NCBI GenBank assembly: GCA_963575645.1
Contig: OY754466.1
Span: 46,656,001 to 46,720,000 of the forward strand
DNA: 64,000 bases
Direction: 5' to 3'
From: Xanthostigma xanthostigma
Lineage: Eukaryota; Arthropoda; Insecta; Raphidioptera; Raphidiidae
This document shows, piece after piece, positions 1 to 62,451 of the stretch. The position numbers and the translations under genes were made by a program. How positions within the stretch are numbered: position 1 is the first letter of the stretch; the number at the start of each line of letters is the position of its first letter. Under the pieces are notes generated by a model. The model worked only from the letters and a program-made list of their open reading frames with translations. It was not told the origin of the DNA and made no database searches.

Positions 1-1242
1 ATAAATCGTGCGACGGTTATAGAGTATGATTTCATGTGGTCGTCAGATGTTTTCCTCGCGCTCCCTGCCATATTTCGCGTTTTAAAACAATAATAGCAAA
101 GCGTTTCAATCCCGCTCTATTGGTCGCTAGCTGCGTTAGTATAGTCTTCGTGGAAGTAGACATCGAATAAAATATTTTATTTTAGATTTTTCTAAGATAT
201 ATTATACTTAATATATTTTTTTTTCAGTGTAACAGCATAAACACTATATTTCCTTAACTGGGTATAAAATTTTCGATAATTAAAGGTGTCGTTTAATTAA
301 TTATTAATTATAACAGTTATTTGAAAAATGCTTATTTGACACAATGTAATAAGAGAATGAAAAATTGCGCACGATAGACGGTGCTACCGTCACGCACCCA
401 GCGATAACCTCTCTGCCAAATATCAAGATTCTAGGACAACGGGAAATGTCCTAGGTTTTTTGATGAAAAAAAATATATTTGGAACAGTAGAATGTACCTT
501 CCGTGATATTTCACCGAGTCATCAAAAATGAGGGGAGGGGGGCAGTAGAGATGTTTACACATGAAAAAGCACATTTTTTCTAAACACTGGGGAGACATAA
601 ACCACTCGCTTTAATTAATTTTGAAAAGTGCGTTTGTCAATATAATTATTATATCATGATCTCGCCGTATATGAATGATGAATCGATGACAGCAGGAGGT
701 TGTCCATATAACTTAATCGTCATTAATCATTAAAGAAGAAATTTAAGCAGCGAAAGATTCAACTGACAACAAAAGAACTTAATCTTACTTCTTTTGTGAA
801 GATCAGAATGAAATGATTATAATAATGTTGGTATTAACATTTCCACCGTGGTTTCATTAAACTTTTACCGAATCTCTTATAGTATTATTATTTTAAAAGG
901 TCGTACTGACCGCTAATTATAGATATATCCACTGGCTTTACGGCCCGGATTCGTCCGCATAGTTTTTGGTTTGGTAGAGGTAACAAATTCGATATATGGG
1001 GCAAGTGCATTTCTGGGGCAAGTTCAGCCACTGTCATTATATTTCACATACACGTGTAGTTAAGTCAGCGAACACCATTTTAGTTCACAGATCGTATACT
1101 GAACCTCGATTTGTTTCACATTTTCGCTTACTGCTCATCGTCCAGTTCTCGCATTCTAATTTTAAATAAAAAATTGTGAAAGCGTTTTTCAAATCGGTCA
1201 GTAGAATCCTTGGATAGAATAATATAAATAATATTTACTTGT
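1..1242. other. Unassigned AT-rich non-coding DNA
   Basis: No open frame of note and no second copy within the window. The only local structure seen is a short perfect hairpin, GACGGT-GCT-ACCGTC, at 377-391. It probably contains decayed repeats that cannot be recognised from this window alone. Confidence 0.6.
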
Positions 1243-1405
1243 CAATAAATAAAATTATCGACCAATTTTTCAGACCATATATTAACAAAAAATATAATTA
1301 ATACATTAATGTTTCAATCCGGATTTTTGTTAATATATTGTCTGAAAAATTGGTCGATAATTTTATTTATTGAAGAGTTCTAATCAGACGTTATTCAAAG
1401 ATTTG
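1243..1405 (-). mobile_element. Inverted-repeat element, copy 1 (Penelope-like family candidate)
   Basis: Two arms of about 33 bp face each other: one begins CAATAAATAAAATTATCGAC at 1243, and its reverse complement ends at 1372. The spacer holds a broken remnant (1311-1326) of the hammerhead-like motif seen complete at 61691-61722, here on the minus strand. Outside the arm, 1373-1405 also matches the flank of the 61.6-kb copy (61553-61585, reverse complement), so the repeat is longer than the hairpin. The inverted repeats plus ribozyme-like core recall Penelope-like retroelement termini, but no reverse transcriptase is visible, so the class is an inference. Confidence 0.6.
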
Positions 1406-1484
1406 AATATTTACTTGTTTTTAAATCATTGAATCTCCACCACTGTACACGACAAACATATTTCTGAATGTGACAAAGAATGTA

Positions 1485-11171: not shown

Positions 11172-11753
11172 GTAAATAGTAGGGATGTTAGGGAGCTCCG
11201 TAACTGTAACCCTGATGATGAAAATATATTTTGCGCAACGTTGGCCACAAGCGATACTTTGGTAAAGCTTATTTTTCAATTGTTCCTCAACCAAATAAAT
11301 CTCCTTCAATACATATTTTTGGAACAAAACTTCTACTAACAATGTAACCGAAACTATTGGATATTCGATATAAAAATCTATCCGTAAGCGTAACCGAATC
11401 CGATATAAAAGTTTCGAATAATTTCGGATAGAGCCGAAGTTTAAATGATATATATGTATTATGTGTTAATAATTTGTTCTACACCAAATCGGAACATTAA
11501 AAAAAATATATTTTTGATTTCCTTCCCGGTTTGGTAGTGAGCCTTTCATAATTACATGATTGGATCGAAGTAGATATTGCACTTCTCATATTCATAACGC
11601 GAAGCATCTAAATTTAAATCTAAAACTATCCGAGACTGATGGATGATCCGAAATTATTTTATACCCGTAACCATATCTGAAGCCGCTATGATATTATTCC
11701 TATATCCGTTTCCAGATTCGAAATTTTATATCCATAACGTCCCTAGTAAATTG
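11172..11753. mobile_element. hAT-type MITE with near-perfect 8-bp TSD
   Basis: The element 11180-11745 (566 bp) begins TAGGGATGTTAGGG and ends CCATAACGTCCCTA. The flanks are GTAAATAG (11172-11179) and GTAAATTG (11746-11753), an 8-bp duplication with one mismatch. Subterminal CGGATA/CGATAT-like repeats lie near both ends. The first bases TAGGGATG agree with hAT termini. No transposase is left. Confidence 0.75.
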
Positions 11754-26400: not shown

Positions 26401-27507
26401 AACCATAATTTATTGTACAGGTAGTTTTTAGACAAGCAAAAACAACATTTTTAACACTCGTGTGTTTAGTGCTGCCGCATAAAACGATGTAGCTCCATAA
26501 CGTCTTCAAATGTCAAAAGCGGTCTTTTTGACATAATATTATGTCCATTTATATTCGATATACAATTAAAAAAACGTTTGTCGCAATTAGCAAAACTTGT
26601 GAATCATAATTTATTTTTTTTATGCGATCTTATGAGACAATTGTGCATTAAATCATTTTTTATGTATATTTCATGAATGGTTAATATTAACAAAAAACTT
26701 TTTAGTACCGAAGTTAATGAACATTGAGTTCTTTACAAAAAAGGTATTGTGTCTTTTTTTCGTAACGTGAAAAGTTGTGTTGTCAAACGTATCCAAAAAC
26801 GATCTGCTTTTTTCTGTTCACACTCACTGCTTTTCTTCCAAATAATTTGTGATTAATTATTTTTAGGAAATACGGTTTTGACAAAATTAATTTACAAGAT
26901 GGCGACGTCCCTCTTTGAACCACATTATCTAAGTATCAAATAACAAAACAAAAACGTGTTCTTCAGTTCGATTTATCACTCCTCAGATGTTTTAAACAAA
27001 AGAAGTACACTTATATTCAAAGAAATGTTTATAAAGTCGTTAATTTTTGCAGTTCTGTTTCAGATTCGGTGCTTCGAAAATTAGTAATATGACAGTTACA
27101 TGCGTGGAAATATTTAGTTTGTATATCAAATTGCTAATTTCAAAAACAACCCTTGAAAAATTTGTTTCGTTGTTCAGGTGTTAAACAAAGTCGCATCTGT
27201 ACATGTGTATGCATTTGTTTGTGGGAGGGGAAAGGTGTGAAAGTCTTTTTTTACGTGCAGCATGTTTGCATAAGCGCCACGTCAGGCGCACTTCTTCTTT
27301 TTCTTGTCATTGAAACCTGTTTTACGTCAACTTGCAAGTAAAATTATTTTACAATATGATGCATTGAATATTTTAATCCATCTTTAAAAATTTGCTTACA
27401 ATTTTCAGTATAATTATAAAAAAGTGGGTGCGTTTACACGTTAGAAGTTATACTTCTTTGGCGAGATAAAAAACTAATTTTTAATTTGCATTGCAAATAC
27501 TTTAATG
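23479..27507. other. Unassigned AT-rich DNA
   Basis: 4 kb with no bounded element. Minor items: a diverged direct pair near 23865-23925 and 24235-24295 (both end in 'gtcgatat.attttttattc'), a short GATAGATAGAGAGAGCGAGA tract near 24345, and a repeat-tail-like GGGCAACGCCGGGTAATTTT at 25142-25161. No frame is convincingly coding. Confidence 0.5.
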
Positions 27508-43798: not shown

Positions 43799-44104
43799 AA
43801 TATTAGTTTGGCACGAAAACAATCAAAAGAAACAAATTTCTCACATATCACTGTACCTCTTGTAGTCATTCCAGTATTCAATGTTCATACGTACGGGATC
43901 CCTAACTTTACGTTTTTTCGCTCACAGTTCAACCCCTCTCCCCATTCTGTTTTAGCGTAGATATAGCTTATTTTATTGGGGAAGAGGCTTTTGAACAGTG
44001 AAATTCAAATCTACTTAAACCCTAAGATTGACTGACAGATAACGCACAGTCTAAACCAGTGGGTCTAGAAGCATGAAATTTTGCATAGGAGCTCCTTATA
44101 TATA

Positions 44105-44150
44105 AATACATAAAATTATCGACCAATTTTTTCACACTATATACTGACAA
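44105..44150 (+). repeat. Lone arm of the hammerhead-like inverted-repeat family
   Basis: AAAATTATCGACCAATTTTT then TCACACTATATACTGACAAA matches the left arm of 1243-1405 and 61586-61794. The rest of the element is not found on the other side of the MITE that follows, so this copy is truncated. Confidence 0.65.
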
Positions 44151-44168
44151 AAATTATAATTCCTTATA

Positions 44169-48503: not shown

Positions 48504-48963
48504 ATAATAGACAGTTTTGTAACTGCCTGGTAGATATTTAGACCCGACTAAATGATCTGGCTGATTTATTTTTTATTTTGTTAAATATGAGAGTATTAAA
48601 ATTTCAATATACTTCAAAATTTTTTTTTGAAAATACAGTTTTGAAAAATTTTAAAAAAATACGAGAGTGCTTTAGACCACACGACTGAAGTAAAACTTCT
48701 TCCTGCCATAATTTGTTATTATTCTCCAGAAAATTCACAAAATATGAACTTTAAAATGAATTTTCAATTTTATTCATTTTAAACGTAGAATATTTAATCT
48801 ATTGAACAAAATATATATTTATAAAACTGTTCAAGAACGAAATGAACAGTCTTATGTAAGAAGAAAGAAATATAAACATTAAGATAATGAAAACAAAAGT
48901 AATACATTGCAATTACTTAGCTCTCGTTGGGTTTTGAGCGTAAATATTTATGAAATATTTAAA
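48504..48963. other. Unassigned AT-rich DNA
   Basis: No feature recognised. Confidence 0.5.
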
Positions 48964-49110
48964 ATTGTCGACCAATTTTTCTCACACCAATATATTGACA
49001 AAAAATAAAAAAATAACAAATCAATATAATATAAGATGACGTTTTGATCCGGATTTGGATCTTCTTCAGAAAAATCTAAAAAATATAAAAATTATTAGTA
49101 TTAGACTGTT
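48964..49110 (-). mobile_element. Hammerhead-like inverted-repeat family, copy 3 (one arm)
   Basis: The arm AAAATTGTCGACCAATTTTT (48962 on) is followed by a minus-strand hammerhead-like motif (49038-49069) whose 5-bp stem GATCC/GGATC is perfect, though GAAA has become AAAA. 49070-49110 is homologous to the reverse complement of 61635-61690. The second arm is missing. Confidence 0.7.
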
Positions 49111-49990
49111 ATTTAATATTTAATATATTTTATGAAATATTATTTAGCTCTGCAAGTTAAGTAGGTTTACAAAACTTTTTTCTGTCACCCGATAGCGCCA
49201 CTGGCAAGTAAAGTATGTGTCATTCTATTGTTAGTACTGCTTATATTTTCGGCTACCTGATGGCGCCACTAGTCAGTGAAGTATTTGTCATCTTTTTTCT
49301 ATCTTCACTAACTTATATCTCCCTCTCAGCTATCGTTCGCCTCGCTCGATCACACTTCCGTAAATTTCTTGTCACGCATTTAGATACCAGCTTACTCCCC
49401 AAGTCAAGCGTGCGTAAAGAAGTTTTACTTAAAAAATTCACGGATTGGTTGATTTTGCGACGTTTCGACTTTTTTATTGAGTCTTCATCAGGCATCTACA
49501 TCACCAAAAAATTTTTATTTTCCCCCATATTTTTTGCTTAGAAATTACACATTTGGTCCTGGCTGTGTGTATTCTAATAGCTTTGATTTTATAGCAGTCA
49601 TCATTATGACATAAACATATTATGAAGCGTCATTTTTTGCCGAACTGTGTACACGACATTGTCATTAATAAAAGTTGCAATCTAAAAATAAGTGTATAGC
49701 CTAAATGGACGCTGTTAGATCAAGATGCTCTGAAATTGCTTATACAAAGCGGATTTATTGTATAAACACCAGACACATGAAATAAGGTCATTTGGGGACA
49801 CCCACACGTCTGGATTGGATCAACAGTAAATTTATTTCAGACATTCAAAACACTTTTGTGGACTGTTGCACCGGCAACTTATCGCGATATAAATCTCAAG
49901 CTTGGAAAGGCGTTAGACTTGTAAATGGAGCGTCCTGGTATAAATTTTCAAAATAGTTAAACCTGGTATATTTTCTGGGATCCAGTTCAA
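49111..49990. other. Unassigned; 108-codon frame of no known family
   Basis: A plus-strand frame at 49215-49541 (MCHSIVSTAYIFGYLMAPLV… then basic) is moderately long. The repeated phrase 'gatagcgccactggcaagtaaagtatgtgtcat' / 'gatggcgccactagtcagtgaagtatttgtcat' (49191, 49259) shows its start spans a 68-bp tandem duplication. I cannot support a gene. Confidence 0.35.
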
Positions 49991-61270: not shown

Positions 61271-61552
61271 TTGCAACCAGGGAGGTCGCAATCTCTTCGT
61301 CCTCCACCGCGCTAGTCCATCATCTACGTATTGTTACCGTGCACTTTTGCCGTCAACTGACAAAGATACGATTTCATTTATGTATATTGTATATCGATTA
61401 TCCTAAATAGTTATAGTAATTTGTTTTTGTTTCTTTTTCAGGTGAGTCCATGATTTAATTTTATCCGAGTTTACAAAATCGGTAAGTTTATTAATTTTAA
61501 AGAAATAAATTCTCGTTGATTTTTTTTGCCTATATAGTGTGTCAGAGTACAT

Positions 61553-61794
61553 GTACAAAACTTTGAATAACGTCTGATTACTCTCCAATAAATAAAATTA
61601 TCGATCAATTTTTCAGTCAATATATTAACAAAAATTTGAATTCTGTTAGAATCTAATTACTAATAATTTTTTATATGCTTTAGCTCATTTCTGAAGAAGA
61701 CCCAAATCTGGACCGAAACGTCAATTAATTGAATTATACTTATAATTTTTGTTAATATATTGTCTGAAAAATTGGTCGAAAATTTTATTTATTG
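61553..61794 (+). mobile_element. Hammerhead-like inverted-repeat family, most complete copy
   Basis: Arms CAATAAATAAAATTATCGAT…ATATTAACAAAAAT (61586) and TTTTTGTTAATATATTGTCT…TTTATTTATTG (to 61794). Between them at 61691-61722 is CTGAAGA, a short stem-loop, and GAAACGTC, in that order. The flank 61553-61585 matches 1373-1405 inverted. The reading as Penelope-like rests on the ribozyme-like core and inverted repeats only. Confidence 0.7.
61691..61722 (+). ncRNA. Hammerhead-ribozyme-like core
   Basis: CTGAAGA matches the conserved CUGANGA box and is followed, after a 17-base stem-loop (AGACCCAAATCTGGACC), by GAAAC, the second conserved box. The copy at 49038-49069 has a perfect 5-bp stem II but AAAA for GAAA. 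The cleavage strand and stem I were not established, so activity is not claimed. Confidence 0.35.
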
Positions 61795-62451
61795 TGTTAA
61801 AGTAGGTATATCCTCACCACTTTTTGTGATTTTATTGAAAGTTTTTCAATACGTTTCATGCTCGTAAAATCGGTATTCTTTTCTTCTACTCGGCACAGAG
61901 CTGGCTCTAGTGACGGGTAGTATCCTATTTAAAGTGAAACTTTTTTAGGCACACTAAGAAATCAGAAGTTTTTCACCTTTTCAGACTTCAACCGTTATTT
62001 GAGAGGAAGAGTGGGAGAATCGTTTCTACTTTCTCTGTCAAAGCGTCATGCGCACTTTACACGCGTGCGTAGTGCGTACTGTGTGTATACGATATACGGG
62101 TAACAAATTCCACTCAACCTAATAAATCTCACGCTATATTTCTTTATTTAATATAATAGGATATTTGGAAAATAAAGATCATTGTTGGACTAAAAATCTA
62201 TCGTAAGCCATTTTGCCTTGTGTCCATTTAATGAATTATTAATATTATGAATCATGACGACTATTAAGTGCATTCTCCGTTATGCGTATCAATTTTAATT
62301 GAAAATGCCATTTCAACAGATGCTCTGAAAAGTTTTTAACGCTCACTGACTCGTAGCGGATGAAAAAACAGTAAAATGAATGAATTTTATCATTTAATTA
62401 GTACAATCAATGAATAGTATATTTATAACCAAGAGATGTATGATAGATAGA
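61795..62451. other. Unassigned stretch
   Basis: No recognised feature; 62040-62100 has a GCGCACTTTACACGCGTGCG phrase with weak dyad symmetry. Confidence 0.45.

What the first reader, a model, noticed from the sequence alone, without database searches (positions are those of the whole stretch)
61553..61794. Inverted-repeat family carrying a hammerhead-ribozyme-like core
Four dispersed loci (1243-1405, 44105-44150, 48964-49110, 61553-61794) share arms beginning CAATAAATAAAATTATCGA. Three contain a motif with the order CTGAAGA - short stem-loop - GAAACG, on the strand dictated by the element's orientation. In the 49-kb copy the stem is perfect (GATCC/GGATC) and GAAA is mutated; in the 61-kb copy GAAA is intact and the stem imperfect. 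Together they suggest an ancestral sequence with both. CUGANGA - stem II - GAAA is the hammerhead core, and Penelope-like elements are known to carry hammerhead motifs in terminal repeats. If right, this is a non-coding Penelope-derived family.
Basis: partly seen in the sequence, partly recalled or inferred. Interest (0 to 1): 0.7.

Follow-up and report, generated by a model that had tools for sequence, protein, structure and literature searches.

The report
Penelope retroelement remnants with minimal hammerheads
These repeats are short, inward-facing remnants of a Penelope-like retrotransposon whose ends carry a cut-down hammerhead ribozyme, a combination already known to science and here found to be very abundant in one large genome.

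Summary
The arms are terminal repeats (pseudo-LTRs) of a Penelope-like element (PLE). The exact 19-base arm occurs 5,393 + 5,389 times in the 623-Mb host genome. Fetched copies are mostly two inward-facing arms with a ~33-base "tail" outside exactly one of them (45 of 50 pairs), and their flanks share 7-14 bp in 33 of 45 (shuffled mean 3.1). Three loci hold the 3' end of a GIY-YIG endonuclease ORF upstream of the motif. The core is a minimal type I hammerhead without stem III. Across PLE families of this genome stems I and II covary: 85.6% of cells paired against 53.8% in shuffles. The cleavage-site base is G in only 83 of 16,739 motif copies. A covariance model built without this family still finds the 61-kb copy (E 0.003). 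Rfam's hammerhead models do not. The window copies look damaged: one is half lost, one has lost G12, one has a mismatched stem II. PLE hammerheads lacking helix III are already published, so this is a new member of a known kind.

The parts
1232..1241 (.). target-site duplication, left copy (TATTTACTTG)
   Evidence: identical 10-mer at 1408-1417
1241..1291 (+). left pseudo-LTR arm of the 1.2-kb copy
   Evidence: 49 of 51 aligned columns identical to the 51-base arm reference that I wrote by eye
1304..1324 (-). 3' half of the hammerhead only (stem II 3' strand and GAAACAT); the CTGAAGA half is missing
1324..1374 (-). right pseudo-LTR arm of the 1.2-kb copy
   Evidence: 51 of 51 aligned columns identical to the arm reference
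1373..1407 (-). one-ended tail of the 1.2-kb copy (right end only)
1408..1417 (.). target-site duplication, right copy
44102..44154 (+). lone degraded arm, no hammerhead
   Evidence: 44 of 53 aligned columns
48962..49007 (+). truncated arm of the 49-kb copy
   Evidence: 44 of 58 aligned columns over 48950-49007
49031..49081 (-). hammerhead of the 49-kb copy; perfect GATCC/GGATC stem II, G12 changed to A
   Evidence: R1 30.5 bits E 3e-5; R2, built without this family, 18.4 bits E 0.031 at 49032-49080
61556..61585 (+). one-ended tail of the 61-kb copy (left end only)
61584..61634 (+). left pseudo-LTR arm of the 61-kb copy
   Evidence: 48 of 51 aligned columns
61683..61729 (+). minimal hammerhead of the 61-kb copy: stem I 61687-61690 with 61723-61726 (3 of 4 pairs, by eye), CTGAAGA 61691-61697, extra A 61698, stem II (3 of 5 pairs, by eye), GAAACGU, cleavage predicted after C17 at 61722
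   Evidence: R2 22.2 bits E 0.003; R1 47.3 bits, in that model by construction
61747..61796 (-). right pseudo-LTR arm of the 61-kb copy
   Evidence: 47 of 51 aligned columns

Best explanation
The family is made of terminal repeats (pseudo-LTRs, pLTRs) of a Penelope-like retrotransposon and its short non-autonomous derivatives. A typical copy runs: target duplication, ~33-base tail, inverted pLTR, interior (palindrome, ORF remnant or other DNA), sense pLTR, target duplication. The pLTR carries a minimal type I hammerhead: stem I, CUGAAGA, one extra nucleotide (A or U as a rule), stem II, GAAACGU, H17, with no stem III. In sense transcripts it is predicted to cut after GAAACGUH. The palindromic ACGU suggests that it acts as a dimer with another copy, possibly helped by the PLE protein. 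Copies spread when a PLE protein (reverse transcriptase plus GIY-YIG endonuclease) nicks AT-rich DNA and starts reverse transcription inside the pLTR, about 69 or 100 nt 3' of the ribozyme cut. Shown here: anatomy, duplications, one-ended tail, ORF link, stem covariation, cleavage-site bias. Inferred: RNA cleavage, dimer formation, the two start sites, extension of both target strands, and mobilisation in trans.
For: Copy number 5,393 + 5,389 arms. Of close neighbours (<1.5 kb) among the first 100 listed arms, 20 of 22 face inward; among the first 100 listed cores, 19 of 22 point outward, the same layout. Tail on one end in 45 of 50 pairs; 25 of 27 among loci picked by the exact arm alone. Flanks share 7 bp or more in 33 of 45; 200 shuffles: mean 3.1, maximum 9. 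ORF remnant in L016, L004 (90.9%, E 1.1e-38) and L058 (69%, one stop inside), similar to GIY-YIG loci L064 and L063 (E 4.0e-8, 3.6e-6); L004 matches the 804-aa L069 ORF at E 6.6e-10, which has RVT_1 and GIY-YIG above cut-off. Stem covariation. Position 17. Independent model. Distances from cut to the two ends: medians 69 (n 56) and 100 (n 24), around the 85-92 nt that follow from PMC11167929. Published structure: passages of PMC3846280, PMC11167929, PMC6155905, PMC7761336.
Against: No Rfam hammerhead model matches, even at E up to 10, in 61400-61900 or in 9 of 85 fetched loci; none at gathering scores in the whole window. Stem III is absent and one nucleotide interrupts the canonical A9-G10.1 junction. 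Two of the five covariation measures do not stand out: pairs changed on both sides (211 of 500 shuffles as high) and further pair types (47 of 500). The L004 remnant scores 20.3 bits for GIY-YIG, below the 22.6 cut-off, and the shorter L016 piece hits nothing in Pfam. No reverse-transcriptase domain was found beside these arms; the genome search with the family's own ORF did not complete. Shared flanks are under 7 bp in 12 of 45, including the 61-kb copy (4 bp), and some shared stretches lie a few bases off the junction. PMC11167929 found the Anolis hammerhead inactive without protein, not needed for insertion, and saw no RNA reads ending at its cut. No expression data were available here.
Confidence: 0.92

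Rival explanations
1. A DNA-transposon MITE: terminal inverted repeats mobilised by a transposase, with a hammerhead-like string of no meaning.
For: Short length, inward-facing near-identical arms, thousands of copies.
Against: The arms are not the outer ends: a ~33-base tail lies outside one arm only in 45 of 50 pairs, and shared flanks vary in length. GIY-YIG ORF remnants lie inside. The motif recurs with different, covarying stems in other families, one beside a GIY-YIG ORF (L068).
Confidence: 0.03
2. The elements are retrozymes: small non-autonomous retroelements with canonical type I hammerheads, copied through RNA circles.
For: Short, non-autonomous, carry a type I-like hammerhead; PMC7229834 (passages) says retrozymes and PLEs co-exist in genomes.
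Against: PMC7229834 describes direct tandem repeats with canonical hammerheads; here close copies are head-to-head and lack helix III.
Confidence: 0.04
3. The element is a PLE derivative, but the motif is no longer a ribozyme in this family: it is kept as a binding or priming structure, or simply inherited. This overlaps with the best explanation on everything but the cutting.
For: Extra nucleotide between A9 and stem II; no stem III; the 49-kb copy and similar copies in L007 and L031 lack G12; PMC11167929 found the Anolis hammerhead dispensable for insertion.
Against: G at position 17 in only 83 of 16,739 copies, a position left open by the search pattern, and covarying stems. The invariance of the core letters is no evidence, because the rows were found by a pattern that fixes them.
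Confidence: 0.3

Closest known systems
Penelope elements of Adineta vaga, such as Pen2a_Av (PMC3846280, passages read)
   Same: Inverted pLTRs, a 31-bp tail optionally at one of the inverted pLTRs, 8-10 bp duplications, palindromes at the inverted junction, unrelated DNA caught between pLTRs
   Different: Low copy number there; here thousands of short copies, most of the fetched ones without ORF; the passages read do not mention the hammerhead
Poseidon of Anolis carolinensis, PAc (PMC11167929, passages and main-text part 2 read)
   Same: Two reverse-transcription start sites that bracket the tail; hammerhead upstream of them; C3 and G8 before the start codon and the codon at the start of stem II, which fits an extra nucleotide between A9 and stem II
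   Different: PAc lies in tandem repeats with an intact ORF. I did not see its hammerhead letters, so the shared extra nucleotide is my inference
Minimal PLE hammerheads of Cervera and de la Pena 2014 and of Lunse, Weinberg and Breaker 2017 (only titles seen, in reference lists; neither paper is held); content as told in passages of PMC6155905 and PMC7761336
   Same: Type I, no helix III, in PLE pseudo-LTRs, thousands per animal genome, dimeric cutting proposed
   Different: Letters could not be compared, nor whether the extra nucleotide was reported

Membership tests
Penelope-like element | one ORF with telomerase-like RT and GIY-YIG endonuclease | tested here: inconclusive
   GIY-YIG remnant upstream of motif and arm in L004, L016, L058; 20.3 bits, below cut-off 22.6; a related 804-aa ORF in the same genome has both domains; RT of this very family not found, search not answered
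Penelope-like element | pseudo-LTRs, often inverted | tested here: met
   20 of 22 close arm pairs among the first 100 listed arms face inward
Penelope-like element | 30-40 bp tail on one pLTR | tested here: met
   45 of 50 pairs; random 60-mers match in 21 of 2,000; in other families by eye in 6 of 9 loci shown: L076, L078, L079, L080, L082, L083
Penelope-like element | short, variable target-site duplication | tested here: met
   shared flank of 7-14 bp in 33 of 45; shuffled mean 3.1, maximum 9
Minimal (PLE-type) hammerhead ribozyme | conserved core CUGANGA ... GAAA | tested here: met
   16,739 exact CTGAAGA/GAAACGT motifs genome-wide, several families, against 35 control matches; the 61-kb copy keeps it, the 49-kb copy has lost G12
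Minimal (PLE-type) hammerhead ribozyme | stems I and II in the right register | tested here: met
   across families; within this family 208 of 250 stem II cells (best slide 140) and 151 of 200 cells of the first four stem I positions (best slide 126)
Minimal (PLE-type) hammerhead ribozyme | H (not G) at the cleavage site | tested here: met
   G in 83 of 16,739; copies within a family are not independent
Minimal (PLE-type) hammerhead ribozyme | RNA cleavage | not testable with these tools
   needs a bench assay
Canonical type I hammerhead (Rfam) | match to the Rfam models, with stem III | tested here: not met
   no hammerhead family; no stem III seen
MITE / TIR DNA transposon | inverted repeats at the very ends and fixed-length duplication | tested here: not met
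   tail outside one arm; variable shared flanks
Retrozyme | direct tandem repeats with canonical type I hammerhead | tested here: not met
   same-direction neighbours in 2 of 22 (cores) and 1 of 22 (arms) close pairs; no stem III

The most novel reading that the evidence does not exclude
The one-tail pattern reveals how PLEs insert. If the two ends chose freely between two reverse-transcription start sites, mixed ends would make up about half of copies; 45 of 50 are mixed. That would mean an asymmetric complex in which one subunit extends one target strand from the inner start site and the other extends the opposite strand from the outer site. The result is an inverted-repeat element that looks like a DNA-transposon MITE but is made wholly by reverse transcription and puts a hammerhead on both strands. 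Against it: PMC11167929 saw no difference in start site between top and bottom strands in vitro, and PMC3846280 explains the inverted repeats by self-priming on an antisense template.
Probability: 0.28. Interest if true: 0.55.

Novelty: new member of a known kind. Interest (0 to 1): 0.36.

Why it matters
A repeat easily annotated as a MITE turns out to be a PLE derivative, and the Rfam scans run here miss a ribozyme-like motif with over sixteen thousand exact copies in one genome. The one-tail pattern gives a countable signature for testing how Penelope elements insert, a step that PMC11167929 leaves open.

Tried and rejected
Rejected: a chance motif (control); a MITE (tail, variable flanks, ORF remnant); a hammerhead in which the tail supplies the cleavage site (an early thought, from an 8-bp match of the tail to GAAACGTTAAT by eye). 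The local stem I fits and covaries across families, so I dropped the latter without a formal test. Rfam scans gave no hammerhead. Pfam on the 78-aa L016 piece found nothing; the longer L004 frame gave GIY-YIG at E 6.8e-4, below the curated cut-off. Searching the window with PLE proteins found nothing at E up to 1.

Rows dropped: 777 loose matches were cut to 116 by an upstream T-rich filter and removal of duplicates; these were cut to 65 by similarity to the family and then to the 50 with a 31-base core. Five of 50 pairs (3 with two tails, 2 with none) were left out of the flank count. The 17 and 13 rows of A1 and A2 were picked by hand as one or a few examples of each motif variant seen, and assigned to families by eye, so they are not a random sample. 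The orientation counts use only the first 100 listed places. Not settled: what the host is (the one query did not complete).

Papers not held: PMC4209133, PMC5785218, PMC5850863, PMC8557442. Searches for prior reports. I saw no report of this family in their listings; most subscription papers are missing from the library.

Full report
What is there. The window lies in a 623-Mb genome of 28 contigs, taken to be eukaryotic from its size and content. The arm CAATAAATAAAATTATCGA has 10,782 exact copies in it and none of the reversed control. Of the four loci reported, the 1.2-kb copy is a nearly perfect pair of arms with a 10-bp duplication (1232-1241 and 1408-1417), a tail on its right end, and only half of the hammerhead. 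The 44-kb copy is a lone arm. The 49-kb copy has a truncated arm and a full motif with G12 changed to A. The 61-kb copy is a pair of arms with a tail on the left and a full motif with mismatches in stem II. So two copies, not three, hold the whole motif.

Anatomy from other copies. I fetched 20 regions with two close arms (19 holding facing pairs, one with two arms in the same direction), eight loci from the top of the same list, and 30 loci most like the 61-kb copy, itself included. Of 50 distinct facing pairs, 45 have the tail (near TTCAAATCTTTGATTAACGTCTGATTAGAACTC, by eye; searched with a 25-base pattern, up to 7 edits) outside one arm only; 3 have two and 2 none. Among loci chosen by the arm alone the count is 25 of 27, among those chosen by likeness 19 of 22. 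Random 60-base pieces of the window match the tail pattern in 21 of 2,000. The longest shared stretch between the 17-18 bases outside each end is 7 bp or more in 33 of 45, against a mean of 3.1 and a maximum of 9 in 200 shuffles; some of these stretches lie a few bases off the junction. Interiors differ, by eye: short palindromes (L009, L012, L019), other sequence, partly palindromic too (L018, L025, L028), and an ORF remnant (L016).

Link to Penelope. A 78-residue frame inside L016 recurs in L004 (90.9%, E 1.1e-38) and, with a stop, in L058 (E 6.1e-15); a 16-residue piece is in L043 (E 0.005). In L004, L016 and L058 it lies upstream of the hammerhead and arm in the same direction. It resembles loci found with the GIY-YIG family (L064 E 4.0e-8, L063 E 3.6e-6). 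An unbroken 804-aa ORF elsewhere (L069), with RVT_1 and GIY-YIG above their cut-offs, matches L004 at E 6.6e-10. The L004 frame itself reaches GIY-YIG at 20.3 bits, under the cut-off of 22.6. PMC3846280 (passages) describes a typical Penelope insert with an inverted pLTR, a 31-bp tail optionally at one of the inverted pLTRs and a 9-bp duplication, which is the plan seen here. I did not find an RT domain of this same family; that search did not complete.

Hammerhead. Within the family, 50 cores of equal length (of 65 family-like ones) pair in stem II in 208 of 250 cells (best slide 140) and in the first four stem I positions in 151 of 200 (best slide 126); position 17 is T 33, C 12, A 4, G 1. 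The fourth stem I pair is C-G in 11 and A-T in 10 copies, a change on both sides, but A-G, unpaired, in 21. CTGAAGAN{14,20}GAAACGT occurs 16,739 times in the genome against 35 for the reversed control, and with G at position 17 only 83 times. The first 100 places listed show several families with different stem II sequences, for example GATAC/GTATC, GTTG/CAAC and GCTA/TAGC. Seventeen hand-picked rows give 85.6% paired cells (shuffles 53.8%, 0 of 500 as high) and covariation 0.724 (slid versions at most 0.197); two weaker measures, pairs changed on both sides and further pair types, were reached by 211 and 47 of 500 shuffles. Thirteen rows without this family give 87.5% and 0.750 (slid at most 0.210), the two weaker measures 73 and 39 of 500. 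A model from those thirteen finds the 61-kb copy at E 0.003 and the 49-kb copy at E 0.031. No Rfam hammerhead model matched the window at gathering scores, 61400-61900 at E up to 10, or 9 of 85 fetched loci at E up to 10.

Two structural peculiarities. Helix III is missing: GAAACGUH runs straight into stem I, as reviews say of PLE hammerheads (PMC6155905, PMC7761336, passages). Between A9 and the pair that opens stem II there is one more nucleotide, A or U in 16 of the 17 rows, followed by G in 16 of 17. [quoted passage not shown] That fits A9, U, G10.1 being the AUG itself, so the extra nucleotide is probably common in PLEs. This is my inference, since I did not see those letters.

How it probably works. 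PMC11167929 reports that the Anolis protein cuts and extends both target strands, and that the tail is the stretch between two reverse-transcription start sites; the main start lies 111-118 bp into the ORF, so about 85-92 nt past the hammerhead cut. Here the arm ends a median of 69 nt past the predicted cut (56 copies, 52-91) and the tail a median of 100 nt (24 copies, 90-107). I read the copies as products of extension from both strands, one start site each, joined in the middle. Other families here show a one-ended tail by eye in 6 of 9 loci looked at. Two printed points speak against this reading: the Anolis start sites did not differ between strands, and PMC3846280 explains inverted repeats by self-priming on an antisense template. 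Cutting by the ribozyme, dimer formation through ACGU and mobilisation in trans are inferred too; the Anolis hammerhead needed protein to cut, was not needed for insertion, and left no matching RNA ends in public reads.

Verdict. The finding is real and, with corrections, rightly interpreted, in a known class. Its interest is moderate: abundance, missed annotation, and the one-tail pattern.

Noticed in passing
window 49452-49499 (-): A second hammerhead of another PLE family, CTGATGAAGACTCAATAAAAAAGTCGAAACGTC, with a 4-bp stem II and 3 of 4 stem I pairs, better preserved than the reported copies (R1 37.3 bits E 5.3e-7; R2 32.2 bits E 6.6e-6). No PLE ORF match in the window and no second copy in the window were found.
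   Followed up: partly
window 11204-11330 (+): Degenerate copy of the PLE family of L076/L078, hammerhead remnant at 11204-11249 (R2 33.1 bits E 3.9e-6; likeness of the rest by eye).
   Followed up: partly
window 26946-26974 (-): Weak match to the PLE hammerhead models (E 0.023, E 0.098).
   Followed up: no
L007, L031 and window 49031-49081: Three similar copies whose motif lacks G12 (for L007 and L031): perhaps a subfamily that spread with a dead ribozyme.
   Followed up: no
L047, L048, L049 (G000:C11:7029762, 7037387, 7045011): The same arm pair three times at about 7.62-kb spacing: a large tandem repeat that contains one of these elements.
   Followed up: no
L069 (G000:C4:23139000-23148990): Three PLE ORF copies close together in both orientations, one 804 aa and unbroken: possible source of a mobilising protein.
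   Followed up: partly
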